Shown: positions 12,390-39,398 of the stretch, in pieces | Numbering within the stretch: position 1 is the stretch's first letter | Layout: each line of letters begins with the position of its first letter | NCBI RefSeq assembly: GCF_900102495.1 | Contig: NZ_FMVQ01000005.1 | Location: 124,001 to 188,000, forward strand | From: Nitrosospira sp. Nl5 | GTDB lineage: Bacteria > Pseudomonadota > Gammaproteobacteria > Burkholderiales > Nitrosomonadaceae | Reading direction: 5' to 3' | DNA length: 64,000 nucleotides | The notes under the pieces: model-generated | The model's database searches: none | What the model saw: the letters and a program-made list of their open reading frames with translations, nothing else | Told to the model about the DNA's origin: nothing | Program-made: the position numbers and the translations under genes

Positions 12390-12812
12390 ATTATCGCGCT
12401 ACGAAGCGATACATCTGGGCGTAGTGGCATTAGAGAAATTGCGGAGAAAGCTTTAATTTAATTGACAAAGTGTTTTTCCCTGGAGCGAAATGGGAAAACG
12501 GTGGGCGCCGGATAGAAGCGAGGCGTGACAACTCTGCAACGAAAGATAATACAACATGACGGCACCTTGCTATTCTACGTCTTCCGCCTGGTTTAACTTT
12601 AATCCATTACGCACAATAGTTTCTACCCCCGTCCCGGCAGCCTTCCGACTTAAAGGAACCGGGCCGCGAAGGCGAAGGCATCCGCCCCAGCCATATTCGC
12701 CGTTTGTTTCGACTAAAGGATAACTGGCGACATTTCATCATTCCCAAGATCCCGGAAATAACCATTCTCCTCCAGCCGCCGCTTCGATTCTCCGGGTCGG
12801 CAGGCTTCTACA
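12390..12812. other. Intergenic region between argC and the DUF6776-like gene
   Basis: No convincing gene in this 423-bp gap. The half next to argC (12636-12807) is repeat copy D, described separately. The other half should hold the promoter of the DUF6776-like/bactofilin/erpA group on the minus strand, but I cannot point to a clear one. Confidence 0.6.
12636..12807 (+). repeat. Dispersed intergenic repeat, copy D (near full length)
   Basis: Left end GGCAGCC (12636-12642), 3-nt spacer, then CGACTTAAAG (12646-12655); core CATATTCGC (12692-12700); right end GATTCTCCGGGTCGGCAGGC (12786-12805), roughly the inverse of the left end. The same ordered signals occur in copies at 24.7, 35.1 and 39.1 kb. 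It ends 5 bp past the argC stop codon. No open reading frame of note. I interpret it as a small non-autonomous element with degenerate inverted ends. Confidence 0.6.
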
Positions 12813-13841
12813 CTAAGGCAGCAATGGAACAAAGTCGATAGCAAGGGTTTCCGGCAAGCCAAACATCAGGTTCATGTTCTGCACGGCTTGGCCCGCTGCG
12901 CCCTTGACGAGGTTGTCTGTTACCGACAATATCACCGCCGTGTCGCCACCTTGCGGACGGTGGACCGCAATACGGCAGAGATTTGAGCCACGTACCGAGC
13001 GGGTTTCAGGGTGCGCGCCCGCGGGAAGCACGTCAACGAACGGTTCCCCGGCGTAGCGTTTTTCGTATAACGTTTGTAGATCGGCGTCACCGGTCAGCCT
13101 GGCATAAAGCGTGGCATGAATGCCCCGAATCATTGGAGTGAGGTGCGGGACAAATGTCAGTCCGACTGGTTTTGCCGCCACGTGGGACAGGCCTTGCCTG
13201 ATTTCGGGCAAATGGCGGTGCCCAGACACACCATAGGCTTTGAAATTGTCAGCCGCTTCGGCAAACAGCGTATGCACCTCCGCATTTCTTCCCGCGCCGG
13301 AAACCCCGGACTTTGCATCCGCGACAAGATGATCCAGATCGACAATACCAGCTTCGATCAAGGGAAAGAAGCCTAATTGCACTGCTGTGGGATAACAGCC
13401 GGGATTTGCTATGAGCCGTGCAGCCTTGATTCCGTCACGATTGATTTCAGGCAGGCCATAAACAGCCTCCGCCACCAGATCGGGACATGCGTGCGACATG
13501 CCATACCATTTTTCCCATACCGCGACATCCTTGATACGAAAATCGGCGGCCAGATCTATTACCCGCACTCCCGCATCCAGCAATGACCTGGCTTGCTGCA
13601 TGGCGATCCCGTTGGGTGTGGCGAAGAATACGACGTCGCATTTATCCAGGCCGGCTTCGGCTGGATCGGAAAATTGAAGTGGCACACGTCCACGCAGGCT
13701 TGGAAATAACTCGGCTACGGCCATTCCGGCTTCTTTACGGGACGTGATGGCGTGTAAGTTTACTTGGGGATGCTGCGACAAGATGCGCAGTAACTCCACG
13801 CCGGTATAACCGGTTCCGCCTACGATAGCAACTTTAAGCAT
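12813..13841 (-). CDS. argC: N-acetyl-gamma-glutamyl-phosphate reductase
   Basis: NADPH-dependent third step of arginine biosynthesis, reducing N-acetylglutamyl phosphate to the semialdehyde. The 342-aa length is standard. The N-terminal Rossmann motif [16 protein letters not shown], the catalytic cysteine in [10 protein letters not shown] and the substrate segment SGHRHLPEI are all present. It stands downstream of rplM-rpsI on the same strand but is separated from them by a strong terminator, so it probably has its own promoter. Confidence 0.96.
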
Positions 13842-13967
13842 AAAATCCTCAGTGAGCAGATTGTTAACAAATGCGCTTGCCTGGAATTTTTAGAGATGCC
13901 TTTATATTTTTGGTTCGATTAGCCCGATTGCTTACATGGAAAATGCAGCGGGCTGATCGATGGCAAG

Positions 13968-13996
13968 AAAAAAAGCCGCCAGAAACAGGCGGCTTT
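13968..13996 (-). terminator. Rho-independent terminator of the rplM-rpsI operon
   Basis: On the minus strand, 27 bp past the rpsI stop, AAAGCCGCC pairs perfectly with GGCGGCTTT across a 7-nt loop (13981-13987) and is followed by a run of seven T residues. It separates the ribosomal operon from argC. Confidence 0.92.
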
Positions 13997-14023
13997 CCAA
14001 ATATGACGTACGCGCAAAAAAGC

Positions 14024-14416
14024 TTATCGTTTGGAAAATTGCTTACGGCGGCGCGCCTTGCGCAGCCCCACCTTTTTTCGTTCCACTTCACGTGCATCAC
14101 GTGTCACCAGTCCGGCACTGCTCAACACCGGTTTAAGCGTGGCGTCAAAATCAATCAACGCACGGGTAATACCGTGGCGCACTGCTCCGGCCTGCCCGGA
14201 TTCCCCGCCCCCATGAATGTTGACCATGATATCAAAGCTTGTAAGATTCCCAGTCAGCTCAAGCGGCTGGCGAACCACCATGCGGCCAGTTTCGCGGGAA
14301 AAAAATTCGTCAACCGGTTTGTCATTAACGGTAATCAAACCCTTGCCGGGTTTGATGAACACCCGAGCCACCGCACTTTTGCGGCGACCTGTACCATAAT
14401 TATACGTTGCGCTCAT
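14024..14416 (-). CDS. rpsI: 30S ribosomal protein S9
   Basis: Small-subunit ribosomal protein whose C-terminal tail reaches the P-site tRNA. The start is the ATG at 14416 ([15 protein letters not shown]), giving 130 aa; the extension to 14476 is not S9-like and would overlap rplM. The family signature [15 protein letters not shown] and the basic C-terminal tail ending [11 protein letters not shown] are intact. It follows rplM with a 4-nt gap. Confidence 0.97.
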
Positions 14417-14420
14417 ATAT

Positions 14421-14855
14421 TTAAGCCCTGACTTCGAGTTGGCGCGGCTGCTGCGCCGCGTGCGGGTGTGCGGCACCCGCGTAGATCTTGAGTTTCTTTA
14501 ACATTGCATAGCCAAGAGGCCCTTTCGGCAACATACCCTTGACCGCCTTTTCCAATGGCCGGCCCGGAAAGCGCGCGTGCATTTTGGCGAAACTGGTCTC
14601 GTAAATGCCCCCCGGATAACCAGTATGACGATAGTAAGTCTTGTCTTCCGCCTTGCTGCCGGTGATGCGCAGCTTATCGACATTGATGACAACGATAAAA
14701 TCACCGGTGTCCACATGAGGAGTGAAAATGGGCTTGTGCTTGCCCCGTAAACGATGGGCGATCTCTGCAGCGAGACGTCCCAACACTTTGCCGGCCGCGT
14801 CGATCACGAACCAGTCATGGACTACTTCATGTGGTTTTGCTGAAAATGTTTTCAC
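14421..14855 (-). CDS. rplM: 50S ribosomal protein L13
   Basis: Large-subunit protein that binds 23S rRNA early in assembly. I place the start at GTG 14855, where the sequence becomes (M)[18 protein letters not shown], the normal L13 N-terminus; this gives 144 aa. The longer frame to 14921 would run through the promoter. The signature [20 protein letters not shown] is present. It is the first gene of the rplM-rpsI operon. Confidence 0.96.
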
Positions 14856-14892
14856 AAAGCCTGCCTGCTTATGCTTATTGAGATAACCGCGG

Positions 14893-14921
14893 ATTTTATG
14901 CCAGACCCGGACGGATGTCAA
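14893..14921 (-). promoter_or_regulatory. Sigma-70 promoter of rplM-rpsI
   Basis: On the minus strand, TTGACA (14921-14916) is separated by exactly 17 nt from TAAAAT (14898-14893). The expected transcript start near 14886 leaves a leader of about 30 nt before the rplM GTG. The near-consensus boxes and position make this the best promoter visible in the window. Confidence 0.8.
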
Positions 14922-15288
14922 ACTTGAAGCCCCTCATGGAATTCCGGGAATAGCTGCTCGACGACATCGCGGCCATACAGGGGACCCGGCGATTCCGCGC
15001 CCGCACCCTGGACTCCAGACGATATTCGCTGAAAAAGTCTTATGCTACTGCAAAGGGACGGAAATTACTCTACAGGCGCCGCTAATCAGGCTGAGTATAT
15101 TCCTGTCAGCACATACACTTCAAACCGAGCCGCCACGGAATTAATCTTTGCCTATTCCTGCCAAAATTCTCAAGAAAACGGGTATTATGTCGACCGAAAG
15201 TGCGTCTGCGACTTGCCGGAGCCGAGCAAGTTTATTGGCGCGAAGACCTTTACCCATTTCTATTATCTTATTGCCCGAGGAGCGTTGC
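14922..15288. other. Intergenic region between rplM promoter and phosphoribulokinase
   Basis: About 370 bp between divergent genes. It should contain the promoter of the phosphoribulokinase gene. A TATTAT at 15183-15188 could be a -10 box, but I see no matching -35 at the right spacing. No small gene or terminator is evident. A LysR-type (CbbR) site might be expected but I cannot identify one with confidence. Confidence 0.4.
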
Positions 15289-16161
15289 ATGTCACAAAAA
15301 CACCCTGTTATCGCCGTTACCGGATCGTCCGGCGCCGGGACGTCGACGGTCAAGAATAGTTTCGACCATGTTTTTCGTCGTGAGAAACTGACCGTTGCGG
15401 TGGTAGAGGGCGACAGTTTCCACCGCTATGATCGTGATGCCATGCGGAAAGCCGTAGCCGAATCGGAAAAGGACGGCGGTCATCCCATTAGTCATTTCGG
15501 CCCGGAAGCCAATGAATTCGAGAAGCTGGAAACCTTGTTCAAGGAGTATGGCGAGAGCGGAAGCGGCAAGACCCGCCTGTATCTGCACAATGATGAAGAA
15601 GCCGCACCTTATCAGCAAAAGGCTGGCACATTCACTCCATGGACATCGATAGAGCCCGGTTCCGACATGCTGTTTTATGAAGGTTTGCATGGCGGAGTGA
15701 AGAGCGATACCGCCGACGTAGCGAACTATGTGGATCTGCTGGTAGGAGTTGTGCCCATTGTCAACCTGGAATGGATCCAGAAAATCCATCGCGACATGAA
15801 TGCTCGTGGGTATTCGGCGGAAGCGGTGACCCATACCATACTTCGCCGTATGCACGATTATGTGCATTACATTACTCCGCAATTTTCACGTACCCATATT
15901 AATTTTCAACGGGTACCCACAGTTGACACGTCCAATCCCTTCATTGCGCGCGATATTCCGACCCTGGATGAAAGTTTTGTCGTGATTCGTTTCCGCGATC
16001 CCAAGAACGTGGATTTTCCTTACCTGCTTTCCATGATCCACAACTCATTCATGTCTCGCCCGAATACAATTGTCGTTCCCGGTGGAAAAATGGGACTGGC
16101 CATTGAATTGATATTAACGCCGCTGATTCTGGATCTGGTCAGGGAAAGCCGAAGCAAGTAA
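15289..16161 (+). CDS. cbbP: Phosphoribulokinase (bacterial class I)
   Basis: Phosphorylates ribulose 5-phosphate to ribulose 1,5-bisphosphate, the substrate of RuBisCO, in the Calvin cycle. The start is ATG 15289, behind a GAGGAG ribosome site (15277-15282). The 290-aa length matches the octameric proteobacterial enzyme; upstream residues in the longer frame are not conserved. The P-loop GSSGAGTST is followed by the VVEGDSFHRYDR and GPEANEFEKLE segments and a LFYEGLHGG stretch typical of the family. It stands alone between rplM and uvrD, with no other cbb gene adjacent. A small CbbY-like phosphatase gene is 38 kb away. Confidence 0.95.
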   Translation: MSQKHPVIAVTGSSGAGTSTVKNSFDHVFRREKLTVAVVEGDSFHRYDRDAMRKAVAESEKDGGHPISHFGPEANEFEKLETLFKEYGESGSGKTRLYLHNDEEAAPYQQKAGTFTPWTSIEPGSDMLFYEGLHGGVKSDTADVANYVDLLVGVVPIVNLEWIQKIHRDMNARGYSAEAVTHTILRRMHDYVHYITPQFSRTHINFQRVPTVDTSNPFIARDIPTLDESFVVIRFRDPKNVDFPYLLSMIHNSFMSRPNTIVVPGGKMGLAIELILTPLILDLVRESRSK

Positions 16162-16474
16162 TCAGGCAGTTCTTTTGAAAAGTGCAACGTCATAAAGGGT
16201 CTCTATCATTCACTTCGTTGTGGTACGTGTTTTTTGACAGACTTCTGCGCCCGTTAAAAGTGCATGAGGCGTAACGTCGTCATATCAGATGAGATTGACG
16301 TATTTTGCACTGCTGGCGTCCAAGCGATTCCATTGTATTTTAAACGATAGGGAGCCCTAAACAATAATCGGGTATATCGCCTTTATATTGTCCTTGTTGT
16401 CCTTATTATCCTTTACGGCCGTGTAGCTCGAAATATTCCGGTCAGCAAACGCGTTCCGGAAAAGTCTTTTCTCA
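16162..16474. other. Intergenic region between cbbP and uvrD
   Basis: A 313-bp gap without a supportable gene. It holds an imperfect 9-bp tandem repeat (16388-16414, three units of the pattern TTGTCCTTG) about 60 bp before the uvrD start. I could not assign a terminator for cbbP or a clear promoter for uvrD. Confidence 0.4.
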
Positions 16475-18724
16475 ATGTCTTCCCTACTTTCAGCATTAAA
16501 TCCCGAACAACTAGAAGCCGTTACCCTGCCGCATGAGTCAGCGCTAGTGCTGGCAGGCGCGGGCAGCGGCAAGACACGTGTGCTCACTACCCGTATTGCG
16601 CATCTCATCCAGTCCGGTCAGGTCAGCCCTCACGGCATACTGGCCGTCACTTTCACTAACAAGGCAGCGAAGGAAATGCTCGCTCGCATTTCTTCCATGC
16701 TGCCCATCAATACGCGTGGGATGTGGGTAGGCACTTTCCACGGACTGTGTAACCGGATGCTGCGTGCCCACCACCAGGACGCAGGGTTGCCCCAGGCTTT
16801 TCAGATTCTGGATTCCGCTGATCAGTTGGCGGTTATCAAGCGTCTCCTGAAAAGTCTTGGCGCGGATGACGAAAAATTTCCTCCACGCCAAGTGCAATGG
16901 TTCATCAATAACGCCAAAGAAGAAGGCCTCAGGGCATCGCGGGTGGAAATTTATGACGATTTCACACGCAAGATGGTTGAGTTCTACCTTTTCTACGAGC
17001 AGCAATGCAATAAGGAAGGCGTAGCGGATTTTGCTGAACTGCTATTGCGTAGCTATGAGTTGCTGACGCGAAACGAACATCTGCGCGAGCATTATCGCGG
17101 CCGATTTGACCATATCCTGGTGGATGAATTTCAGGACACCAACCGGTTGCAGTACAGTTGGCTAAAGCTGCTTGCCGGTGACCGCGCTGCTGTGTTTGTG
17201 GTTGGCGATGATGATCAGAGTATTTATGCATTCCGGGGTGCGAATACCGGCAACATGAAAGATTTTGAGAAAGACTTCCGCATCTCCAAAATCATCAAAC
17301 TGGAGCAGAACTATCGCTCGCATGGCAACATACTGGCCGCTGCTAACACCCTGATACGCAACAACAGCGGGCGCCTCGGCAAAAATCTCTGGACTTCGGA
17401 AGGACATGGAGAACCGATACGCGTGTATAACGCGCCGACCGATTTCGATGAGGCGGCTTTTATCGTGGACGAAGTTAAATCGCTGCATGCGGAAGGCGTC
17501 GCGTTGTCCCAGATAGCATTGCTGTACCGCTCCAACGCCCAGTCACGGGTACTGGAGCACGCTTTATTCAATGCCTCCCTGGCTTATCGGGTATATGGCG
17601 GCATGCGTTTCTTCGAACGGCAGGAGATCAAGCACGCTTTGGCCTACCTGAGGCTGATAGCCAACCCCGACGATGATAATGCGCTGCTTCGGATCATCAA
17701 TTTTCCTGTACGCGGTATCGGCATGCGGAGCCTGGAGCTATTGCAGGACGATGCCAGCCAGCAAGGGGGGAGCTTGTGGGCGGCAGCGCTAAAGAAATGC
17801 AGAGGCAGGACAACTGCCATTCCCGATTCGGAAAATAAACTCTCGGCCCGGATCGAGCGGAAAAGCCAGGCGGATAGGCCCAAGAAAGGCCTTGAGGGCT
17901 TTGTTGCGCTGATTGAATCAATGCGCCAGGGTTGTGAAACGCTGCCATTGCCGGAAGTCGTCGAACACATGCTGGAGCACAGCGGGCTGGCGGCACATTA
18001 CCGCGCTGAACGCGAAGGAGCCGAACGGCTGGAGAATCTGAACGAATTGGTCAATGCCGCCACCAGCTTCGTGCACGAGGCCGAGGATGACAGTCTTGTG
18101 GTATTTCTGGCCCATGCATCGCTGGAAGCAGGCGAGCATCAGGCAGCGGGCGGCCAGGATGCGCTGCAATTGATGACAGTGCACTCGGCCAAGGGGTTGG
18201 AATTTCACAGCGTATTCCTGAATGGGCTTGAAGAAGGTTTGTTTCCTCATGATAACAGCCGTAATGAAGCAGGGGGCGTGGAGGAGGAACGACGCTTGAT
18301 GTATGTGGCCCTCACCCGCGCACGGCGACGGTTGTATTTGAGTTTTGCCCAGAGCCGCATGTTGCACGGGCAGATCCGTTACAACATTCCCTCGCGTTTC
18401 TTGCAGGAGATCCCGGATGGTTTGCTGAAGTGGCTACAGCCGCTTCAGAAGAATCAGATCGGCAATCAGGGATTGGCAGTCCGGAAGCAAGGGGCAAGCC
18501 GAGCCCAGGAAACTGGTTACGGCATGCAGACTCGTACATTGAACATTCAGGACGCGACGACATCGCGTTGGCGGGTGGGACAGAACGTGATACACGCCAA
18601 ATTCGGCGCGGGAGTGATAGTCAACTGTGAAGGTCAAGGCACTGACGCCCGCGTGGAGGTCAAATTTGGCCGTGCCGGCACGAAGTGGTTATTGCTGGAG
18701 TATGCGAAACTGATTTCTGCGTGA
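16475..18724 (+). CDS. uvrD: DNA helicase II (UvrD)
   Basis: Superfamily 1 3'-to-5' helicase acting in nucleotide excision and mismatch repair. The 749-aa protein shows Walker A GAGSGKTR, motif Ia TFTNKAAKEM, motif II DEFQDTN, motif III GDDDQSIYAFRGA, motif IV EQNYRS, motif V TVHSAKGLEF and motif VI YVALTRAR. Its C-terminal tail (HAKFGAGVIVNCEG...KWLLLEYAKL) matches the UvrD tail and distinguishes it from Rep and PcrA. It converges on the next gene with only 13 bp between stops. Confidence 0.95.
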   Translation: MSSLLSALNPEQLEAVTLPHESALVLAGAGSGKTRVLTTRIAHLIQSGQVSPHGILAVTFTNKAAKEMLARISSMLPINTRGMWVGTFHGLCNRMLRAHHQDAGLPQAFQILDSADQLAVIKRLLKSLGADDEKFPPRQVQWFINNAKEEGLRASRVEIYDDFTRKMVEFYLFYEQQCNKEGVADFAELLLRSYELLTRNEHLREHYRGRFDHILVDEFQDTNRLQYSWLKLLAGDRAAVFVVGDDDQSIYAFRGANTGNMKDFEKDFRISKIIKLEQNYRSHGNILAAANTLIRNNSGRLGKNLWTSEGHGEPIRVYNAPTDFDEAAFIVDEVKSLHAEGVALSQIALLYRSNAQSRVLEHALFNASLAYRVYGGMRFFERQEIKHALAYLRLIANPDDDNALLRIINFPVRGIGMRSLELLQDDASQQGGSLWAAALKKCRGRTTAIPDSENKLSARIERKSQADRPKKGLEGFVALIESMRQGCETLPLPEVVEHMLEHSGLAAHYRAEREGAERLENLNELVNAATSFVHEAEDDSLVVFLAHASLEAGEHQAAGGQDALQLMTVHSAKGLEFHSVFLNGLEEGLFPHDNSRNEAGGVEEERRLMYVALTRARRRLYLSFAQSRMLHGQIRYNIPSRFLQEIPDGLLKWLQPLQKNQIGNQGLAVRKQGASRAQETGYGMQTRTLNIQDATTSRWRVGQNVIHAKFGAGVIVNCEGQGTDARVEVKFGRAGTKWLLLEYAKLISA

Positions 18725-18737
18725 ATGTAAACCTGAA

Positions 18738-19493
18738 TCAGCCCGGTCGGACATCGCTACTGTCAGCTCCGGTTGATTCGACTACATCATCCGTAAAAAT
18801 ATCTCTGTAACTTGCATAAATAGAGGCAAACATGGTCGGCACCAGAACAAACAAGCCCAGACCATAGGGCATTGCTGCGACTATCGTCAGCACGATCAGT
18901 ATGACAGCATAAATCTGAAACGCCACGATGTTTTTGAGGCAGGCAAAGAAGCTTATCCGCATTGCATCCAGTGCGGGCATATCCTTGAATATCACCAGTA
19001 AAGGTGCGAACCAGGCGGCCATCATTAGCGGAATGGATAGCATCAGTGCCACCAGGGATGCGGATAACATATCTCCCGAGACGTTTTTCAACTCATTCTC
19101 GTCGACCCGTTTTCCGTCTATCAAAAGATCCATCAGTACATTTCCTCCGACCAGCATGAATACCCCGAGAATCAGTACCTGTCCGACCAGATAAATCCCC
19201 CCAATAGTGATCAGCGGGCCGGAGGTGTGCCGGAAGCCTGCGAGTAAATGTGTAATCTCCAGTTTGTCGCCTTGTTCCAGGGCCTTGCATCCTATCATCA
19301 GCCCGGCTAAAAATACTGGCGAGAGGAGCGTAAAAATAAATTGTCCTGCTACTGGTATCAGGGACAACGTGGCAGCGATCAGAAGCAAAGTCGTGCATAG
19401 TACAATCCACGTCAGCGGAACCTGGCGGAATATAAGGAAGCCGGTCACAATCCATTGCCATCCCTGTTTTGCATCGACTTGCCTGACTTCCAT
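18738..19493 (-). CDS. BPSS1780-like multi-pass membrane protein
   Basis: Uncharacterised integral membrane protein of 251 aa with about six hydrophobic segments spread along its length (for example VPLTWIVLCTTLLLIAATL, LVPTMFASIYASY). A recurrent GWQW/F..P.. type N-terminus suggests the betaproteobacterial BPSS1780 family. No enzymatic motifs. It converges with uvrD and sits just downstream of thrB on the same strand. Function unknown. Confidence 0.75.
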   Translation of the reverse strand: MEVRQVDAKQGWQWIVTGFLIFRQVPLTWIVLCTTLLLIAATLSLIPVAGQFIFTLLSPVFLAGLMIGCKALEQGDKLEITHLLAGFRHTSGPLITIGGIYLVGQVLILGVFMLVGGNVLMDLLIDGKRVDENELKNVSGDMLSASLVALMLSIPLMMAAWFAPLLVIFKDMPALDAMRISFFACLKNIVAFQIYAVILIVLTIVAAMPYGLGLFVLVPTMFASIYASYRDIFTDDVVESTGADSSDVRPG

Positions 19494-19541
19494 TTCCGTA
19501 TCTCCGATAGGATAGCGCCAGATTCCGACGTAGTTAACCGT

Positions 19542-20492
19542 TCAAATCCAGACTTGTGCCAGTCTTGGCTGGGATGCCGCATGGCTTTTCAGTATGTGCA
19601 TGAAATGTGCGGGGTTTTTTGCATGGGTCAATTCCCCCGTGCGCGGCAAGTGATAATCATGCAGCCGTGATAACCAGAAGCGTAAAGCCGCGGCGCGCAG
19701 CATCACCGGCCAGGCGCCGCGTTCGATAGCGGTAAGCGGCCTGGCATGGTGATAACCCTCAAGTAGAGACAACGTGCGTTCCTCATCCAGATCCCCGCTC
19801 TCACTCAGGCACCAGTCATTGGCGGTAATAGCGAGATCGTATAACAACGCATCGTTACAGGCGAAATAGAAGTCAATCACTCCGCCTATCGCGCTGTCGA
19901 CGAATAATACGTTGTCACGAAAAAGATCCGCATGAATTACGCCGCGCGGCAGATTTTCAAAACGATACAACGATTGGAAATGCAGTTCCTCTTCGAGAAC
20001 CGCGATTTCCTCGGCTGTCAGGAATGGCATGATATCGGGCGCTACCGCTTTCCACCATTTTGGACCTCGCGGATTCTCCATTTTCTCAGGATACGATAGG
20101 CCGGACAAATGCATGTTCGCCAGGAGTGCGCCGACCTCTGCGCAATGCGCCAGGCCAGGGCATTCCTGCGATTTTCCAGGCAAACAGGTAACAATGCTTG
20201 CCGGTTTACCATTAAGTTCGCCGAGGAATTTATTGTCAAGATCAGCTATCGGGCAGGGACATGGAATGCTGTGCCGCGACAAATATGCCATCAGGTTCAG
20301 GTAGTAAGGCAGATCGGCCGCGGTGAGCTTTTCAAATAGAGTGAGAACATATTTTCCATGACTGGTCGTGACAAAATAATTCGTATTTTCGATGCCGGAG
20401 GAGATCCCCTGCAGATTAATCAGCGTGCCCAGCGAATAGTTTCTCAGCCAGGCGGAAAGTTGATGCTGAGTGACGGTAGTGAATACAGACAT
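19542..20492 (-). CDS. thrB: Homoserine kinase (ThrB, APH-fold type II)
   Basis: ATP-dependent phosphorylation of homoserine, the penultimate step to threonine. The 316-aa protein is of the aminoglycoside-phosphotransferase-fold type found in beta- and alphaproteobacteria, not the GHMP type of E. coli. The catalytic loop [14 protein letters not shown] and the metal-binding IDFYFACND are visible, and the N-terminal [13 protein letters not shown] forms the nucleotide loop. It is preceded on the same strand by a DUF2782 gene, a neighbour pairing I recall from related genomes. Confidence 0.92.
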
Positions 20493-21159: not shown

Positions 21160-21212
21160 GGCGGCTCCCGGCGGGATGAATGAGTTCATTCTATCCGAAA
21201 TGACATGGCTTG

Positions 21213-24698: not shown

Positions 24699-24707
24699 TG
24701 TACTGGT

Positions 24708-24831
24708 CCATATTTCGCCGCTTTCATCCACGAAGGCAGATGGAGAAACAACTATTGGCCTTTTAAAGGCGTCAAAATCGGTCTTCGCCCAGTCATTCTC
24801 CCGCGCGATTCTTTAAGTCGAGCGGGCTGCC
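24708..24831 (+). repeat. Dispersed intergenic repeat, copy C (right part)
   Basis: Contains the core CATATTTCGC (24709-24718), CAACTATTGGCC (24749-24760), TCAAAATCGGTC..TCGCCC (from 24772) and the right end CTTTAAGTCG (24811-24820), 4 nt, GGCTGCC (24825-24831). The right end is the exact inverse complement of the CGACTTAAAG left-end motif of copies B and D. The left end is missing, so it reads as a truncated element between polA and the rpsP promoter. Confidence 0.6.
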
Positions 24832-24843
24832 AGTATTTTTGTA

Positions 24844-31757: not shown

Positions 31758-32978
31758 ATGAAAATAAGCCGCACGAATGTCTTCTACCTTCAGCATTTAC
31801 TATGGTCGCTGCCGTGTATTGGGTTGTTACTCGCGCTCCCCGGCTGTGTATCGCCCATCGCGCTCAACCGCGCTGTTGGCGCTTATGACGATGCCATTAC
31901 CAGCGCGGCGTCCAAGCAGCTGTTGACGAATATCGCTCGCGCCCATCACCATCAGCCCATCCATTTCACTGGCGTATCAAATGTCGCGGCCACCTTCGAT
32001 TTTCGCTTTAATGCCGGGGCTACGCCCGCGCTGGGGGGGCTAGCCGGACAGGTGCTGATGCCGATATTCGGCGGGAGTGTTGCGGAAAATCCCACCATCA
32101 GCATCGTACCGATAGAGGGAGAAGAGTTTACCAAGCGGCTCCTCACCCCGTTTCAGCAAAGCAAACTCACCCTTCTGCTCCGTCAGCGTTTTGATATCGA
32201 TCTCTTGCTGAGACTGATGGCACAGGAAGTGCGCATTCAGCACCAGGCACAGCAGATTGCTTATCGCAACACGCCTTCTGATCAGCCGGGCTATGAAATG
32301 TTCCGCCGCGTGGTGCTGCATTTGTCGGCCATTCAGGATCAAAACCAGCTCTATGCCGAACCGCTGACCTTGGAACGCACCTGGACAATTCCCGGCGGTT
32401 CGATTACAGCAGAAGGTTTTCAAGCTCTGGAGAGAGAGTTTGTCCTGCGCTACAACAAGCAGGATAATAGCTATACGCTTCGCAAACAGGTGGCGGGACC
32501 TATCCTCATCACCAACTATAATCCGAATACCTTGTCTTCAGACGAGCGCGCGCGGCTGAGCGATGAGGTGGAAGCGTGGAGTATGAACGATGTCGCTTTC
32601 GACATCCGACCAAACCATCCTGGCGGAGATTGGCCTGTTAGAGGAGCCTTCCGGCTCAGAAGCTTCCATGCAATTCTCAGTTTCCTCGGCCGGTCCATCG
32701 GCGACGAGCCGGAGTACCATATCGAGAAGGACATCCGGACGCCGCCGATCAAGGGCGGCGAAAACCCAATTTCCACGATGGGACTGATTGTGTCCGACTC
32801 GCAACCCTCGGAAGCCGATCTATCGATTCACTCGCACGGCCGCTATTACTCGGTGGGTACCGTGGGTCCGCTCGCCCGCTGGAACCGAGACGCCTTCCAG
32901 ATGTTGTATCTCCTGTTTCAGATGACGATTACCGATATTCCACGCCATGGGGTACCAAGTATCACGATCGCGAAATAA
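31758..32978 (+). CDS. Hypothetical lipoprotein
   Basis: A 406-aa protein from ATG 31758 with a lipoprotein signal ending LALPGC (Cys30). The longer frame to 31701 would bury the signal sequence. The mature protein begins with an Ala-rich helix (AVGAYDDAITSAASKQLL) and a GVSNVAATFDFRFNAG segment, with later acidic and amphipathic stretches. I recognise no catalytic motif and no named family. It follows the secreted barrel-like gene on the same strand after a 317-bp gap. Envelope location is well supported; function is unknown. Confidence 0.78.
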   Translation: MKISRTNVFYLQHLLWSLPCIGLLLALPGCVSPIALNRAVGAYDDAITSAASKQLLTNIARAHHHQPIHFTGVSNVAATFDFRFNAGATPALGGLAGQVLMPIFGGSVAENPTISIVPIEGEEFTKRLLTPFQQSKLTLLLRQRFDIDLLLRLMAQEVRIQHQAQQIAYRNTPSDQPGYEMFRRVVLHLSAIQDQNQLYAEPLTLERTWTIPGGSITAEGFQALEREFVLRYNKQDNSYTLRKQVAGPILITNYNPNTLSSDERARLSDEVEAWSMNDVAFDIRPNHPGGDWPVRGAFRLRSFHAILSFLGRSIGDEPEYHIEKDIRTPPIKGGENPISTMGLIVSDSQPSEADLSIHSHGRYYSVGTVGPLARWNRDAFQMLYLLFQMTITDIPRHGVPSITIAK

Positions 32979-33015
32979 TACGTTTCCCCTGAGAATCGCC
33001 GTGGACATTAGCGGC

Positions 33016-33639
33016 CTATTTTAAAGCGGCGGTCGTCTGTTCCGAGAAGCGCCACTCGCCTGGCGCAATGCCATGCAGCGAATATGGCCCGACAGCATAG
33101 CGGATCAGACGCAGCGTAGGGAAGGATACGGCCGCAGTCATGCGCCGCACCTGGCGGTTTTTGCCTTCTTTGAGCGTCAGTTCAATCCATGAAACAGGAA
33201 TATTTTTACGCGAGCGAATGGGTGGCGTACGCGGCCAAAGACTATCGGGTTCATCCATTACGCTTACTTGTGCAGGCATTGTTTTGAAACCGCTCAGTGT
33301 CACGCCCTGTCGCAGCTTATTCAACGCAGCTTCATCCGGTACGCCCTCCACTTGGACCCAATACGTTTTGGATAGCCCGTGCCTGGGGTTGCTGATTTTG
33401 TTCTGCAATTTGCCATTATCAGTCAGCAGCACCAGGCCTTCGCTATCGGCATCGAGCCGCCCCGCGGGATAAAAGCCGGGCAACTGGATGAAGTCCTTTA
33501 GAGATTTGTAGCCGGCCTCCGGGGTGAACTGGCAAATGACTCCGTAGGGCTTGTTGAAAAGAATGAGAGGGGGCATTTTTTGAGCTGGACACATAGCGGC
33601 GGAAAGGATGTGGTTTGAGGATAGCGCTCTGGAAGTCAT
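33016..33639 (-). CDS. rluE: 23S rRNA pseudouridine synthase (RluE-type)
   Basis: RsuA/RluB/RluE-family pseudouridine synthase, most like RluE (U2457 of 23S rRNA). It lacks an S4 domain and goes straight into the catalytic fold: ILFNKPYGV, then [14 protein letters not shown] with the catalytic Asp, and [15 protein letters not shown]. The frame gives 207 aa. Conservation begins at LILFNKPYG, so an internal start (ATG 33576 or 33594) is possible; none has a good ribosome site. Confidence 0.87.
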
Positions 33640-33685
33640 GGAGAAGCGCGATCAGGGAAGCCAGCTAATTGCCGAACAAAAATGA

Positions 33686-34258
33686 TCAGAACAAACGGGC
33701 GATTTCCCGCTGCAGTTGCGCCACGACAAACAGCAGTAGCTGAATGACGATCAGCACGAAAAGCGGCGACAAGTCCACGTTGCCGATGGGAGGAATGCGC
33801 CTACGAATACCACCCAGGAATGGGCGCGTGAAACTGTCGAGCGTCGGGGCCAACGGGTTGTGCGGGCTGAACCACGAAAGTACCGCCTGTATGATTATCG
33901 CCACCAGGATAATGTAGAGCGTCATTTTAATGATTTCCATCAATCCCTGCAGCGCTATTCCCGCAACGGCGATACCGATAGTGGAAGTGAAATCGTAACC
34001 CTGAAGCATATGCACCCCCGCCAGCAGAATGCATTGCGCAAGCCATGCCAGCAGCAACGTGGAAAGATCCATTCCCTTGAATCCAGGGATCACCCGGCGT
34101 GCGGGCCGTACGATAAAATTGGTAAGTGCGACGAGAAATTGCGACAGCGGGTTGCGATAGGGAGCGCGCAGCAGTTGCATATAAAAACGCAGCAGCAGCG
34201 CCAACGAAAACAATCCCAGCAGGGTGTCGAGCAGGAATATCAGTATCTGGTTAAGCAT
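33686..34258 (-). CDS. YggT-family membrane protein
   Basis: Integral membrane protein of 190 aa with two YggT repeats, each a hydrophobic hairpin around an RP.RR or FxRP motif (NFIVRPARRVIPG and FTRPFLGGIRRRIPPIG), and about four membrane segments. Some relatives are linked to osmotic shock, division or photosystem assembly. It follows proC on the same strand with a 16-bp gap, a pairing common across bacteria. Confidence 0.92.
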   Translation of the reverse strand: MLNQILIFLLDTLLGLFSLALLLRFYMQLLRAPYRNPLSQFLVALTNFIVRPARRVIPGFKGMDLSTLLLAWLAQCILLAGVHMLQGYDFTSTIGIAVAGIALQGLMEIIKMTLYIILVAIIIQAVLSWFSPHNPLAPTLDSFTRPFLGGIRRRIPPIGNVDLSPLFVLIVIQLLLFVVAQLQREIARLF

Positions 34259-34274
34259 CAGTGTTTCCTAAAAT

Positions 34275-35087
34275 TCAGTTTCTGCCAAACTCATCGCCCA
34301 ATTCACGCGAGCGCTTATTTGCCGCATGCATCGCACGTATGACGGCATTCTTGACTCCATCTTTTTCCAGAGACTCTATCGCGCGTTCCGTGGTGCCGCC
34401 CTGTGAAGTTACCCGGGCGCGCAGCACGGCAACGCTTTCATCGCTTTGACTTGCGAGCCCGGCCGCCCCGAGAAAGGTCTCCAGGCTCAGCAGCCTTGCC
34501 TGGGCCTCAGTTAGCCCTAATTCCTGTCCCGCCTTCTGCATTGCTTCGATGAAATAGAAAACATAAGCCGGCCCGCTGCCGGAAAGGGCAGTCACCGCAT
34601 CCAGCAACTCCTCGCGCTCAACCCATAGCACGGAACCTACCGCAGCAAGTATGGCCTCCGCATCGTGTCTTTCCTCCGTACTCACACCAGGCAGAGCATA
34701 GAGACCAGTGACCCCCGAGCGAACCAGCGCAGGCGTATTGGGCATGGCCCGCACCACGTGTTCGTACCCGCCCAGCCAGCGGGAGATATCAGTGGCGCGA
34801 ATACCCGCAGCGATGGAAATGACCAGATGATTTCCGAGCAGTGCCGCAAGCTCCTGCGCCACGATTGGGAGTTGCTGCGGCTTCACAGCCAGCAGGACGG
34901 CATCGCTATTGGCCACGCCTTCGGCAAGCTCCGCCACCGCTTCCACGTTAAACTCATGTTTTATTTTCTCGCGCCCTTCAGCGTTGATTTCCACTACACG
35001 TAGTTGCGCAGGCAGGTAACCCCGCTGCAGCAGTCCGCCGATCAAGGCTGACGCCATGTTGCCGCCGCCGATGAAAGTGATGTTCAT
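34275..35087 (-). CDS. proC: Pyrroline-5-carboxylate reductase
   Basis: Last step of proline synthesis, NAD(P)H-dependent reduction of P5C. The 270-aa protein has the N-terminal Rossmann motif IGGGNMASALIGGL, VRAMPNTPALVRSGVT, SGSGPAYVFYFIEAM and the C-terminal TSQGGTTERAIE motif. It heads a proC-yggT pair on the minus strand. Repeat copy B lies in the gap upstream. Confidence 0.96.
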   Translation of the reverse strand: MNITFIGGGNMASALIGGLLQRGYLPAQLRVVEINAEGREKIKHEFNVEAVAELAEGVANSDAVLLAVKPQQLPIVAQELAALLGNHLVISIAAGIRATDISRWLGGYEHVVRAMPNTPALVRSGVTGLYALPGVSTEERHDAEAILAAVGSVLWVEREELLDAVTALSGSGPAYVFYFIEAMQKAGQELGLTEAQARLLSLETFLGAAGLASQSDESVAVLRARVTSQGGTTERAIESLEKDGVKNAVIRAMHAANKRSRELGDEFGRN

Positions 35088-35137
35088 GCGGTCCTATAAT
35101 CCTGTGCGAAGTTTTGTAAATGGCGATGATATACCCT

Positions 35138-35228
35138 GGCAGCCTGTCGACTTAAAGAAAATCGGCTACAAAAGGGCGCGAAGGCCGCAAAGGCCGCAAA
35201 GGCCGAGGGCTGGCCCATATTTCTCTAT
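35138..35228 (+). repeat. Dispersed intergenic repeat, copy B (left part)
   Basis: Left end GGCAGCC (35138-35144), 3 nt, CGACTTAAAG (35148-35157), then a 9-bp tandem (AAGGCCGCA at 35181 and 35190, partial at 35199) and the core CATATTTC (35216-35223). The right half is missing where mutM begins. The signals match the left half of copies A and D in order and spacing. Confidence 0.6.
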
Positions 35229-35230
35229 GC

Positions 35231-36046
35231 CTATTTTTGACAACGCGGACAATAAAAACTTGAACGCTGTCCCTGCCTGATCTGGACGATGACAGCGCCG
35301 CACTTTCGGCAGGGCTGCCCGGTTCGGTGATACACCCAATACTGCTGCTGGAAATAGCCGGGATTGCCGTCGCTGTTGACGAAATCGCGCAAGCTGCTGC
35401 CGCCGGCTTCTATCGCGAGGTGGAGTGTCTCCTTTATCGCCCGCGCTAGTTTGCCGTACCTGCTTACGCCAATTCGTCCCGCCGACGTAGTGGGATTGAT
35501 GCCCGCATGGAAGAGCGCTTCGCTGGCGTAAATGTTGCCGACGCCGACCACAATACGGCTGTTCATCAGGACCTCCTTGATGCTGGCGGTACGGCGCCGG
35601 GTTTTTTCGTATAGCAAATTTCCATTGAATGCAGCGGTAAGCGGTTCAGGCCCAAGTCGAGCCAATAACGCATGGTGTGCGACATCGGCGGTTTCCCACA
35701 CAATTGCGCCAAAACGTCGCGGGTCCTTCAACCGCAAGACTGTGTCATTATCTAAAATCAGATCGACGTGATCATGTTTTTGCGGCGGGGTTGCGGCAGG
35801 CAGCAATCTCAGGCTGCCGGACATTCCGAGATGCAGGATCAGCGTCCCTTTGCCACAGTCGAATAAGAGGTATTTTCCACGTCGCATCACCTTGCTGATT
35901 TCCTGCCCGCAAAGCATGCCTCCCAGATCGTGTGGTACCGGCCAGCGCAAGCTCGGGTTTCGTATGGTAGCGCCAATAAGGCGGCGTCCCTCAAGATGGG
36001 ATACGATACCGCGACGGATGACTTCGACTTCAGGGAGTTCAGGCAA
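35231..36046 (-). CDS. mutM: Formamidopyrimidine-DNA glycosylase (MutM/Fpg)
   Basis: Excises 8-oxoguanine and formamidopyrimidines from oxidised DNA. I set the start at TTG 36046, so the protein begins (M)[12 protein letters not shown] with the catalytic proline second, as the mechanism requires. An AGGGA ribosome site sits 8 nt before this TTG, whereas the ATG at 36055 overlaps it. The 271-aa protein has Lys in [11 protein letters not shown], a helix-two-turns-helix region ([14 protein letters not shown]) and a C-terminal four-Cys zinc finger (CRKCG...CPRC). A 27-bp gap separates it from the GldG-type gene upstream on the same strand. Confidence 0.96.
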
Positions 36047-36073
36047 TTGGAACATCCCTGTAAAATTTTGGCC

Positions 36074-37429
36074 TCATCTTCTTCTCCGGCGCCACCAAAT
36101 AATCGCGCCGCTGGTCAAAAACACGAATGGAAGGATGATGAGGAAGCCGCCGGCAATGATGATTAGCGCCGGCTCGCTTAACATCACGCTGCTGTCGATA
36201 GTGGCCCGAGGCTGAATAGTGATAAGATTTTCGTCACCGGCGAGCCAATTGACGAGATTAATGCCGAAATCCAGGTTGTTGCCGTTACCGAGATAAGTAT
36301 TGGCAAGAAAATTTCCGCTGCCGATGACGGCGATGCGCTGCTCGCGGTCTTGCCAAATGCGGCTAAGGGCGGCGGCGATACTGACGGGACCGGACACATC
36401 GTACATTTTGTCGAAGACGACCTCGGAATCCAGCTTGCCGGTTTCCACCCATCCGCTTTGGGCAGCCTCCACCAGCGAAACGCTATGCCATTCCTTGTTT
36501 TCATTGATGGTTATCTGCCGGGCAAAAGGAAACATCGTAATATAATCGAAATTGTGCGTGACCGGATGCTGTCCGTAATTCGCACCCAGCGCGAAAGTGA
36601 TGGGCAATTTTAGCTTCTGAGCTTGAGGATCAACCACCACGCCGGATGTGAGCGTCAGTTCCAGTTTCTCGGCCAGCGGCTGGAGCCCTCGCAAAGGTTG
36701 CTGATCGATTAGCCACAATAGATTGCCGCCCCGGGCGATATACGAAAGCAGCTTGTCCACTTCTCCCTCCGACAGATCAACTTGTGGCGAGGCAATAACG
36801 AGCATGCTCGCATCCGCCGGCACATCGCGGTCAATAGAAAGATTGAGCGTCTCGATCTTGAAGCCTTTGGTCGCTAGTTGCCTGCCAAATTCTCCCATGT
36901 CATGGCTGGAGATACCGTCCAGCTTGCGTTCGCCGTGGCCGGTGAGCGTCATCACCCGCTTTTCCCTTGAACGCGCCAGCCGCATCAGTAGACTGCTTAA
37001 CGCTTGTTCATTGAAAGTGGTGAGGTGTTCGCGCCTGCCTTCAAACGCTACCACCATTTCCCCATTAACATGAACTCCCGCGTCCTGCGTGAGCTTTGGC
37101 TGCTCGACCGGATCAATGAACGTGACTGTGAAATCGGGTTTTGCGCGCTGGTAACGTGCGAGAAACTCACCGATAATTTTACGAATATCCCCCAGTTTCG
37201 CGTCTTGCGCCGTTGCGTAGACGGTAATGCTGACCGGACCGCTAACCTTTTCCAGTACCTCCAGGCTTGCCTGGCTTAAACTGTGGCGTCCGTTCTGGCT
37301 GACATCCCACTGGACGCGGGTTTTCCACGCCAGGTAGCCCAGCGACACGACGAACAATATCAGCAGCACGACAAGCACGCCATTTTGCACCTGCCAGTGC
37401 GTCCGCAGTTTATCAGTCACTGTGATCAT
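36074..37429 (-). CDS. GldG-type ABC transporter auxiliary protein
   Basis: A 451-aa protein with one N-terminal membrane segment (about 19-39, GVLVVLLILFVVSLGYLAWK), a large extracytoplasmic domain of the GldG/ABC-type uncharacterised family (WDVSQNGRHSLSQAS..VLEKVSGPVSITVYA) and a C-terminal membrane segment with a basic tail. It is the third gene of a GldA-GldF-GldG-like operon. In Flavobacteria these proteins support gliding, but homologues in non-gliding bacteria have other, mostly unknown roles. Substrate unknown. Confidence 0.85.
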   Translation of the reverse strand: MITVTDKLRTHWQVQNGVLVVLLILFVVSLGYLAWKTRVQWDVSQNGRHSLSQASLEVLEKVSGPVSITVYATAQDAKLGDIRKIIGEFLARYQRAKPDFTVTFIDPVEQPKLTQDAGVHVNGEMVVAFEGRREHLTTFNEQALSSLLMRLARSREKRVMTLTGHGERKLDGISSHDMGEFGRQLATKGFKIETLNLSIDRDVPADASMLVIASPQVDLSEGEVDKLLSYIARGGNLLWLIDQQPLRGLQPLAEKLELTLTSGVVVDPQAQKLKLPITFALGANYGQHPVTHNFDYITMFPFARQITINENKEWHSVSLVEAAQSGWVETGKLDSEVVFDKMYDVSGPVSIAAALSRIWQDREQRIAVIGSGNFLANTYLGNGNNLDFGINLVNWLAGDENLITIQPRATIDSSVMLSEPALIIIAGGFLIILPFVFLTSGAIIWWRRRRR

Positions 37430-37447
37430 TGATACACCTGCACGGTT

Positions 37448-38194
37448 TCAACCACGTAGCCGTTCTCCGTCCAGTCGGCGAACGGACAACACCAGAAAGA
37501 CGGTAATAAACAGTGAAAAGTACGCGAGATCGAACGTGTCAATCATGCCTCGATTGAAATTCCCATAATGCTCGAGGAGAGAAAAGTTGCGCGTAATGCT
37601 CTCTTTTTCGTCTCCCGCGCCAATGTCTATTACCCACAATCCCAGCAGTGCGCCCAGCGTGCCGGAAGCCGCAATCGCCGGATGGGCGGTGAGGCAGGAA
37701 ATATAAAGCCCGAGAGAGGCAAAGCACGCGGAGATCAAGAATATGCCAAAGACATTGCTCAGCAATAAGCCGAAATCCAGGGTGCCGCCTGCCAGTAGAG
37801 AAATCGACAGTGCCACCACCAGCGTTATCACAGCTGAAAAGAAGACCATCAAACCGAGAAATTTTCCCAGTACGATGTCGGTCATGGAAATGGGCGCGGA
37901 AATGAGAAGAGTCATGGTGTGGTTACGGCGCTCCTCAGCAATGAGCCGCGCCGTTAAAACGGGTGTGACCATCAACAGCATTACCGCAGCCATGGAGAAT
38001 ACCGGTGCAATAATTGTCTCCGTCACTCCCGGTGGATTGGCGATGGCCACCAGTTGCGGCTGGATTTGCAGAAAGGTATCGAGATGGGCGAGAAAAATCC
38101 AGGTCAGCACTAATTGCACCAGCGCAAGCAGTATCCAGGCCAGCGGCGAGCTAAACAGAATTTTCAGTTCCTTCCGGGCAATGGTGAAAATCAC
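37448..38194 (-). CDS. ABC transporter permease (GldF-like)
   Basis: Six-pass ABC-2 type permease of 248 aa (segments around residues 15-35, 60-80, 100-125, 135-160, 170-190 and 215-235). The TLLISAPISMTDIVLGKFLG stretch is typical of ABC-2/GldF permeases. It lies 16 bp after the ATPase gene and 18 bp before the GldG-type gene, so all three form one operon. Confidence 0.88.
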   Translation of the reverse strand: MIFTIARKELKILFSSPLAWILLALVQLVLTWIFLAHLDTFLQIQPQLVAIANPPGVTETIIAPVFSMAAVMLLMVTPVLTARLIAEERRNHTMTLLISAPISMTDIVLGKFLGLMVFFSAVITLVVALSISLLAGGTLDFGLLLSNVFGIFLISACFASLGLYISCLTAHPAIAASGTLGALLGLWVIDIGAGDEKESITRNFSLLEHYGNFNRGMIDTFDLAYFSLFITVFLVLSVRRLDGERLRG

Positions 38195-38210
38195 AGGGAA
38201 ATGATGAAAA

Positions 38211-38972
38211 TCACAACGATGAAAAACTCTCGGAAATTTTTGGATTCATGGTGAATCGTGTGAATACCTCCTCCAGGCTTGTTCCTTTCAGTTTTAGTCC
38301 GTCGACAGAGCCGCAAAACACGACGCGGCCCTCGTGTACGATCTGCACCCGGTCACAGATGCTTTCGACCTCCGGCAGGATATGGGTCGAGAGAATGACG
38401 CTGTGCTCGGAGCCCAGTTCACGAATGAGGGTGCGAATTTCGCGGATCTGGTTAGGATCGAGCCCCACGGTTGGTTCATCAAGGATGATTACATCGGGAT
38501 TATGAATAATTGCCTGCGCGATTCCGATCCGCTGCTGATAGCCTTTCGACAGCGAGCTAATCAGCCGTTTGGCTGAATCATTCAGCCCGCAGCGTTGTAT
38601 CACTTTATCCACGGCAGAATCAATACTTGGGCTGTTTATTCGATGCAATCTGCCGGCGAAATGCAAGTATTCCCGCACGGTCAATTCCCGGTAGAGCGGA
38701 GGTGTTTCGGGTAGATAACCAATGCGTGCCTTCGCGTCACGGGGCTTATCCAGCAAGTCTATCCCACAGATCTCAATGCTCCCCGCAGTCGGCGCGAGAT
38801 TGCCGGTGAGCATGCGCATGATGGTGGTCTTGCCCGCGCCGTTGGGACCAAGAAACCCCAGTACTTCTCCACGCTTCAGTTCCAGGTCGATTTCCCGCAC
38901 GGCGACGTGTGCATCGAAGTTACGGCACAAGCCGCGGACCGAGACGGTTACAGGGACAATTTGTTCAGCCAT
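38211..38972 (-). CDS. ABC transporter ATP-binding protein (GldA-like)
   Basis: Cytoplasmic ATPase subunit, 253 aa. Walker A GPNGAGKTT, Q-loop GYLPETPPLY, signature LSKGYQQR, Walker B VIILDEPT and switch His in STHILPEVE are all intact. It is the first gene of the three-gene GldA/F/G-like operon, transcribed divergently from the TPR lipoprotein gene. Confidence 0.93.
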   Translation of the reverse strand: MAEQIVPVTVSVRGLCRNFDAHVAVREIDLELKRGEVLGFLGPNGAGKTTIMRMLTGNLAPTAGSIEICGIDLLDKPRDAKARIGYLPETPPLYRELTVREYLHFAGRLHRINSPSIDSAVDKVIQRCGLNDSAKRLISSLSKGYQQRIGIAQAIIHNPDVIILDEPTVGLDPNQIREIRTLIRELGSEHSVILSTHILPEVESICDRVQIVHEGRVVFCGSVDGLKLKGTSLEEVFTRFTMNPKISESFSSL

Positions 38973-39398
38973 AAAAACATTCTGCCATTTTGAATCGTCT
39001 GGAGCCGCTCCTTGCGGGTATTAATTGCCTTCCATATTTCTTTGGTGCATATAAGGTCGCACTTGGAACTTTGAATTTATAAGGCTGCCATATAAGCATG
39101 TCGCAAACACCCCGACTGACAGCCTGTCCGAGTTGAAGAAATCGCCTGCAGAAGCGCTGGGCCGATTCATATTTCGCGGCTTTTTCGGCAAATAGAGCAA
39201 CTATTCGCCCTCAAAATCCTCAAAATCTGTCCTCGCCCGGTCACGCATTCGCTTCAAGTCTCAAAGCCCGGCAATTGCTAGTTGGCAATGTGCACTTGTG
39301 ATAAGCGGAAAATATACCTAATATGTGCGATGTATTGAAAGCCAATCCAGCCTCTTATTTCCTTATTTGCTTTATTTCGAACCTGTCTGGATTTCCCC
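38973..39398. other. Intergenic region between divergent GldA-type and TPR genes
   Basis: A 426-bp gap with no supportable gene. Its middle (39118-39273) is the most complete copy (A) of the dispersed repeat. Promoters for both flanking operons must lie here, but none is clear by eye. Confidence 0.5.
39118..39273 (+). repeat. Dispersed intergenic repeat, copy A (full length)
   Basis: Left end GACAGCC (39118-39124) and CGAGTTGAAG (39129-39138); core CATATTTCGC (39168-39177); CAACTATTCGCC (39199-39210); TCAAAATC..GTCCTCGCCCGGTCA to 39243; right end GCTTCAAGTC..AAGCCCGGC (39251-39273), whose inverse resembles the left end. It combines the left part seen in copy B and the right part seen in copy C. 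Roughly 156 bp, no coding potential. Confidence 0.62.

What the first reader, a model, noticed from the sequence alone, without database searches (positions are those of the whole stretch)
12636..39273. Four-copy family of small intergenic repeats with inverted ends
Copies at 12636-12807 (D), 24708-24831 (C), 35138-35228 (B) and 39118-39273 (A). B and D start GGCAGCC, 3 nt, CGACTTAAAG; C ends with the exact inverse complement of that 10-mer and 7-mer variant GGCTGCC. A starts GACAGCC..CGAGTTGAAG. All share a core CATATTTCGC (CATATTCGC in D, CATATTTC in B). A and C also share CAACTATT and TCAAAATC..TCGCCC. B looks like the left part, C the right part, A and D nearly full. All lie at gene ends. 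This reads as a degenerate MITE-like or structured RNA element not explained by genes.
Basis: partly seen in the sequence, partly recalled or inferred. Interest (0 to 1): 0.62.

Follow-up and report, generated by a model that had tools for sequence, protein, structure and literature searches.

The report
Hairpin-shaped miniature transposon family in Nitrosospira
Four small repeats between genes turn out to be worn copies of a 160-base hairpin-shaped DNA parasite that inserts at the sequence CTAG and probably borrows the enzyme of a known type of bacterial jumping gene; it is a new family of a known kind, with the unexpected twist that its folded shape seems to have been preserved during evolution.

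Summary
A profile from 66 family members scores the four copies at 138.6 (A), 66.4 (C), 37.6 (D) and 30.1 bits (B); the best of 40 shuffled windows reaches 10.1. The host genome holds at least 56 copies or fragments at E<=1e-3. The element is an imperfect palindrome, 160 bp between two CTAG tetramers, folding end to end.

It is a MITE. Its 19-22 bp ends equal ends of IS1182-family insertion sequences on Pseudomonas plasmids and in same-genus genomes. In sister genomes 5 of 8 readable empty sites hold a single CTAG where the filled site has the element between CTAG or CTAG-like tetramers. Copy A is absent from all 20 relatives with a readable gap.

IS1182-associated MITEs of 160-169 bp are in print (PMC3852290), so this is a new family of a known kind. 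One feature goes further: between bacterial families 18-20 of 57-64 hairpin pairs show changes on both sides that keep pairing (shuffles 8-9). No orientation bias was seen and no Rfam family reaches its threshold, so hairpin DNA is favoured over a regulatory RNA.

The parts
39116..39281 (+). Copy A, nearly full-length MITE, end tetramers CTGA and CTAG, between divergent genes (ABC-transporter ATPase on -, TPR protein on +)
   Evidence: E 6e-35; 80.6% identity to the consensus over positions 5-159; absent from 20 of 20 readable relatives; ends read
24701..24833 (+). Copy C, right three quarters of the element; left end missing next to the stop codon of the DNA polymerase I gene
   Evidence: E 9.2e-17, model 46-167; 1 of 20 readable relatives (G014) has an element in the same gap
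35136..35227 (+). Copy B, left end (model 2-65) with an inserted GGCCGCAAA-type stretch, between genes of a pyrroline-5-carboxylate-reductase-like and a formamidopyrimidine-DNA-glycosylase-like protein
   Evidence: E 4.6e-6; 30.1 bits vs 10.1 best shuffle; gene names by Pfam
12636..12809 (+). Copy D, full-length but strongly decayed, upstream of a DUF6776 gene and downstream of a semialdehyde-dehydrogenase-like gene
   Evidence: E 2.4e-10, model 3-166; 37.6 bits; gene names by Pfam

Best explanation
A non-autonomous transposable element (MITE), 160 bp between duplicated CTAG tetramers, whose terminal inverted repeats (CAGCCTGTCGGACTT and its inverse) are cut and joined in trans by an IS1182-family DDE transposase. 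It inserts at CTAG and duplicates it. Copies in other genomes of the genus are still up to 97% identical to a copy in the window's genome, so it moved fairly recently in the lineage. In the window's genome copies range from such young ones to fragments and no intact partner was found, so the four window copies are fossils. SHOWN by sequence: the family, the ends shared with IS1182 elements, single CTAG at most readable empty sites, presence/absence between relatives. INFERRED: that an IS1182 transposase does the moving, and, less surely, that the full-length hairpin has been kept because the folded DNA matters to the element.
For: Multi-copy family: 56 distinct places at E<=1e-3 in the own genome; matches in 15 of 23 same-genus genomes, own included. 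Ends: a 22-base end matches exactly on 5 Pseudomonas plasmids; 3 of the 5 were opened, each with an annotated IS1182 transposase between two CTAGCAGCCTGTCGGACTT ends. The same ends flank a truncated IS1182 transposase in G016 (both ends perfect over 19 bases) and a 479-aa one in G019 (one end perfect, the other 17 of 19); the G019 protein passes NF033551 at E 3.8e-100. Target: 24 of 66 copies have exact CTAG on both sides, and 52 of 66 are within one mismatch on both sides. Empty sites: 5 of 8 readable ones carry a single CTAG. Copy A absent from 20 of 20 readable relatives. Variant ends CTAGGAG in distant copies also occur beside an IS1182 fragment in G003.
Against: Of the 11 genomes with ten or more element matches, seven (G002, G004, G005, G009, G011, G014, G021) show no IS1182 match; the own genome and G020 show only weak fragments, G018 pieces, and only G019 a full gene. 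So partner loss, or a partner too distant for the query, must be assumed. G016 has an IS with these ends but no element. Beyond about 22 bases the element shares no clear sequence with the ISs. 3 of 8 readable empty sites are not exactly CTAG (one CTGG, two degenerate) and 2 of 10 could not be read. 13 of 66 copies have CTAG on neither side. Movement itself was not observed.
Confidence: 0.92

Rival explanations
1. A structured non-coding RNA or riboregulator, dispersed between genes, whose function is carried by the transcribed hairpin.
For: Compensatory changes between distant lineages: 20 of 57 pairs (alifold structure) or 18 of 64 pairs (structure from one sequence) with a change on both sides; shuffle means 8.8 and 8.3; 0 of 500 shuffles as high. 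Within the genus the cells changed on both sides (37 vs 16.6) and the covariation score (0.062 vs 0.054) also exceed all 500 shuffles.
Against: Insertion at CTAG with duplication, and IS1182 ends. No orientation bias relative to neighbouring ORFs: 47 of 79 copies with a called ORF on both sides split 10 ++, 11 --, 15 +-, 11 -+; without one duplicate and five orthologous copies, 44 of 73 split 10, 9, 15, 10. No Rfam family at its threshold. Within the genus the number of pairs changed on both sides is no higher than in shuffles, 8 vs 6.4, 122 of 500.
Confidence: 0.05
2. A REPIN-like element moved by a REP-associated tyrosine transposase (RAYT) through single-stranded hairpin DNA.
For: Full-length hairpin with compensatory changes, as reported for REPINs in PMC3116915 (passages read).
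Against: Ends are those of IS1182 DDE elements; CTAG duplication. RAYT genes were not searched for here.
Confidence: 0.02
3. Not mobile on its own: repeats spread by recombination or inherited from an ancestral duplication.
For: Many own-genome copies are fragments (27 of the 56 places are under 140 bp); copy C's gap also holds an element in G014; five G019 copies share their flanks with G020 copies.
Against: Empty sites with a single CTAG between sister genomes for 5 of 8 readable sites; apart from those five orthologous pairs the 12-base flanks printed for 70 loci look unrelated by eye.
Confidence: 0.01

Closest known systems
ISMac2-associated MITEs of Methanosarcina acetivorans (IS1182 family), PMC3852290 Table 4 (passages, section 16)
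   Same: Partner family IS1182; 160 and 169 bp, 14 and 7 copies, IR 26 and 25, DR 4 and 0. The section says of its MITEs in general that only the borders resemble the partner IS.
   Different: Archaeal host, different IS. Their sequences are not printed in the text I read, so they could not be compared; no hairpin covariation is described in the section read.
MITEPsy1 of Pseudomonas syringae pv. phaseolicola, PMC3189936 (passages read)
   Same: [quoted passage not shown] trapped transposing.
   Different: 100 nt, ends GGAAGGTCTGAAAAAGCC, listed as 'IS5?' and thought to come from ISPsy2, not IS1182.
REPINs, PMC3116915 (passages read)
   Same: Miniature mobile hairpin with compensatory changes on both sides.
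   Different: RAYT-associated; built of two short REP sequences. The CTAG duplication and DDE-type IS ends seen here are not described in the passages read.
Correia/NEMIS and ERIC repeats (recalled, not tested)
   Same: Recalled: palindromic intergenic elements of roughly this size at many places in a genome.
   Different: Recalled: TA targets and other termini; no sequence comparison made.

Membership tests
MITE | Short (<600 bp), multi-copy, too short to code for a transposase | tested here: met
   160 bp between tetramers, 66 aligned copies 164-171 bp with them; 56 own-genome places at E<=1e-3
MITE | Terminal inverted repeats shared with an autonomous element | tested here: met
   19-22 bases identical to IS1182-family ends
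MITE | Target site duplication and empty sites | tested here: met
   Single CTAG in 5 of 8 readable empty sites; the other 3 are CTGG or degenerate
MITE | Mobilised in trans by the partner transposase | not testable with these tools
   Needs a transposition assay
IS1182-family partner | Transposase belongs to IS1182 | tested here: met
   NF033551 336.1 bits, cut-off 270, in G019; truncated G016 copy 201.2 bits, below cut-off; DDE_Tnp_1_6, DDE_Tnp_1 and DUF772 in G019
IS1182-family partner | 4-bp target duplication in this family | tested here: inconclusive
   CTAG at both ends of the 5 ISs read, but no empty site of an IS was examined; ISPse1 is listed with DR 4 in PMC3281130 (passages); ISPsy36 has target GGCC in PMC8027508 (passages)
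IS1182-family partner | Intact partner in the window's own genome | tested here: not met
   Only weak or broken fragments, best E 1.5e-8
Structured non-coding RNA | Compensatory base changes | tested here: met
   Between families 20 of 57 and 18 of 64 pairs, 0 of 500 shuffles as high; within the genus mixed. Would also fit structured DNA
Structured non-coding RNA | Known family or strand-specific placement | tested here: not met
   No Rfam family at its threshold; no orientation bias
REPIN | RAYT transposase and REP pairs | not tested
   No RAYT search was run

The most novel reading that the evidence does not exclude
A DDE-transposase MITE whose entire length is a selected hairpin. Stems covary across bacterial families while some mismatches persist (T56.C120 in 9 of 10 rows of A4), so the folded DNA, as cruciform or single strand, would be needed for its transposition, its replication or its evasion of palindrome-cutting nucleases. 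This would bring a REPIN-like structural constraint into the IS1182 world.
Probability: 0.3. Interest if true: 0.6.

Novelty: new member of a known kind. Interest (0 to 1): 0.42.

Why it matters
It explains a dense repeat (about one detected copy or fragment per 54 kb in this genome) of Nitrosospira-type bacteria, known as ammonia oxidisers, and gives their annotation a usable profile. It ties a MITE to IS1182 ends and to a CTAG duplication with empty-site evidence. It also offers a test case for whether the long hairpin of foldback MITEs is merely a by-product or is itself under selection.

Tried and rejected
Rfam at gathering threshold on the window gave only 6S RNA and a tRNA. A relaxed search of three element loci gave two hits far below gathering: a microRNA family inside the element of L358 (22.3 of 55 bits) and a Yersinia sRNA outside the element of L076 (24.1 of 70 bits); both taken as chance. 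Plasmid and phage searches with the element found only the IS end or nothing. The IMG/VR scan gave 18 contigs with the terminal repeat, not examined. The search around L019 listed other element copies and one short flank match in G002, so it gave no usable empty site. A 39-row alignment (A5) was made but not used for counts because many rows are decayed copies with unsure boundaries; in choosing rows for A4 I left out a single-end match in G032 (L077), an arm-truncated copy in G001 (L074) and a third G050 match whose place was not listed. The L160 search on plasmids did not settle whether that Deltaproteobacteria MAG contig is binned correctly. Locus D was not compared with relatives.

Templated palindrome correction was considered as a source of the covariation. 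It is disfavoured because shared mismatches persist, but this is inference only: in five rows unpaired columns are on average less conserved (66%) than paired ones (79%), which does not by itself favour sequence-specific loops.
Full report
WHAT IS THERE. The four stretches are on the + strand and belong to one family. A model from 66 copies (A3; only copy A of the window is among them) finds them at E 6e-35 (A, 39117-39274), 9.2e-17 (C, 24701-24832), 2.4e-10 (D, 12636-12809) and 4.6e-6 (B, 35137-35227); apart from the same places on the opposite strand, nothing else in the window has E below 0.5. Bits of 138.6, 66.4, 37.6 and 30.1 compare with a best of 10.1 in 40 dinucleotide-shuffled windows and 8.6 in the reversed window.

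COPIES ELSEWHERE. In the own genome the model gives 85 rows at E<=1 (150 of 1317 candidates scored, so a lower bound). Merging both-strand rows leaves 56 distinct places at E<=1e-3, 29 of them at least 140 bp. With one young copy as BLAST query, 19 of 61 genomes match: 15 of 23 of the same genus including the own, 1 of 14 of other genera in the family (weak), 3 of 24 of other families of the order; the best copies elsewhere are 96-97% identical to the query. A core pattern in the named genome collection gives 33 stretches: 32 in records titled Nitrosospira or Nitrosovibrio, 1 in a Deltaproteobacteria MAG. Contig lengths suggest that G019 and G020 are Nitrosovibrio sp. Nv6 and Nv4 (inference).

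ANATOMY. The consensus is 168 bp with both CTAG tetramers, 160 bp between them: ends CTAGCAGCCTGTCGGACTTAAAG..CTTCAAGTCCGACAGGCTGCTAG, core GGCCAATAGAATAACTATTGGCC. It folds end to end at -70.5 kcal/mol (RNA parameters), 64 pairs. Shorter derivatives keep both ends: G018:C25 (about 95 bp, L338), G020:C2 (about 81 bp, L321), and a 40-bp end-to-end pair in G011 (L108).

PARTNER. A 22-base end of the element matches exactly on five Pseudomonas plasmids. In the three opened, it is the end of an IS annotated as IS1182 family, with CTAGCAGCCTGTCGGACTT at both ends. In the genus, 6 of 23 genomes have an IS1182 match at E<=1e-3: G019 with a 479-aa transposase (NF033551, 336 bits, cut-off 270) between CTAG-flanked ends, one of them with two mismatches; G016 with a truncated one between perfect ends; G018 with pieces, mostly at contig ends, several carrying such an end; the rest fragments. 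Of the 11 genomes with ten or more element matches, seven have no IS1182 match, and the own genome only fragments. So the partner assignment rests on the ends, not on co-occurrence.

TARGET AND MOBILITY. Of 66 copies, 24 have exact CTAG on both sides, 29 on one, 13 on neither; 52 are within one mismatch on both sides. Flanks of ten insertions (eight of G019, two of G020) were joined without their tetramers and searched in both genomes. Eight empty sites could be read: five have a single CTAG (L302, L303, L305, L310, L313), one CTGG (L314), two are degenerate (L320, L321). Window copy A: 20 of 22 relatives have a readable gap between the same two genes, and none of the 20 contains the element by blastn or by profile (best 1.9 bits); in 16 the gap is 190-278 bp against 426 here, in 4 it is 397-714 bp for other reasons; G002 is 155 bp shorter. 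Copy C: 1 of 20 readable relatives (G014) has an element in the same gap. Copy B: of 19 readable relatives, 5 have gaps of 13-14 bp, too short to hold it, and the 14 scanned reach at most 10.0 bits, below the shuffle maximum. D was not compared.

STRUCTURE. Across 66 Nitrosospira-genus copies the evidence is mixed: pairs with changes on both sides are not raised (8 vs 6.4 in shuffles, 122 of 500 as high), but cells with such changes (37 vs 16.6), cells paired (95.2% vs 94.7%) and covariation score (0.062 vs 0.054) exceed all 500 shuffles; 21 of the 37 cells are one pair, 51-130, that differs between lineages. Across ten sequences it is strong (A4: three young Nitrosospira-genus copies, two lone copies of that genus, five from outside; L160 found by pattern, the rest by BLAST): 20 of 57 pairs with the alifold structure (8.8 in shuffles; slid structures 3-8) and 18 of 64 with a structure taken from one G019 copy alone (8.3 in shuffles; slid 5-7), 0 of 500 shuffles as high in either. 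Examples: pair 39-138 A-T, T-A or G-C; 45-132 T-A or A-T; 5-173 C-G or G-C. Such shuffles ignore relatedness, and only about six lineages are independent. In five rows unpaired columns are less conserved than paired ones (66% vs 79%), but some mismatches, such as T56.C120, are nearly invariant. By rough ORF calling, 9 of 79 copies lie inside an ORF of 100 codons or more, 23 lack a called ORF on one or both sides, and the 47 others split 10 ++, 11 --, 15 +- (convergent), 11 -+; without one duplicate and five orthologous copies the picture is the same (44 of 73: 10, 9, 15, 10). No Rfam family reaches its threshold.

MECHANISM. Shown: a repeated element with IS1182-type ends that sits where relatives mostly have a single CTAG. 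Inferred: an IS1182 DDE transposase recognises the ends and moves the element. Further inferred, and less sure: the hairpin is maintained because folded DNA matters. A transcript function is not supported.

COMPARISON. IS1182 MITEs of 160 and 169 bp with direct repeats of 4 and 0 are listed in PMC3852290 (section 16 read); a CTAG-duplicating MITE in PMC3189936 (passages); compensatory hairpins in REPINs in PMC3116915 (passages). PMC8027508 (passages) gives GGCC as the target of the IS1182 element ISPsy36 and CTAG for ISPsy32, whose family is not stated there. PMC9208149 (passages) reports IS1182 over-represented between convergent genes; the 15 of 47 seen here are only a slight excess. Searches of the open library for Nitrosospira with MITE and inverted-repeat terms found no paper; with 'transposable elements' four and with insertion sequence and repeats two, none about this by title and abstract start. 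Subscription journals and ISfinder were not searched.

VERDICT. A new MITE family of the IS1182 kind, fossil in the window; ordinary in class, with an unusual covarying hairpin worth a test.

Noticed in passing
window 62928-63108 (-): 6S RNA (RF00013), 78 bits, above gathering score.
   Followed up: no
window 42842-42913 (+): tRNA gene by Rfam, 63.8 bits.
   Followed up: no
window 35175-35210: Short GGCCGCAAA-type repeated stretch inside copy B, between its left end and the CATATTTC motif.
   Followed up: no
L160:4004-4171 (-): A related element with CTAGGAATCTG-type ends in a contig binned as a Deltaproteobacteria soil MAG, in a region that also resembles moeB/ThiF sequence of rhizobial plasmids; transfer between phyla or a binning error.
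   Followed up: partly
L073, L419 (G050), L075 (G043), L076 (G058): Related hairpins in other families of the same order; L073 and L076 have CTAGGAG ends, L419 ATAGGAG, L075 CTAGCAG; L076 has a rewritten but still paired middle stem.
   Followed up: yes
L338 (G018:C25), L321 (G020:C2), L108 (G011): Internally deleted mini-versions keeping both ends, from about 95 bp down to 40 bp.
   Followed up: partly
G000:C12:13502-14805 and G000:C30:68141-68467: Weak, partly broken IS1182-like transposase matches in the window's own genome.
   Followed up: no
G000:C20:185248-185492: Three partial matches to copy A close together, possibly nested or clustered insertions; two of them are weak.
   Followed up: no
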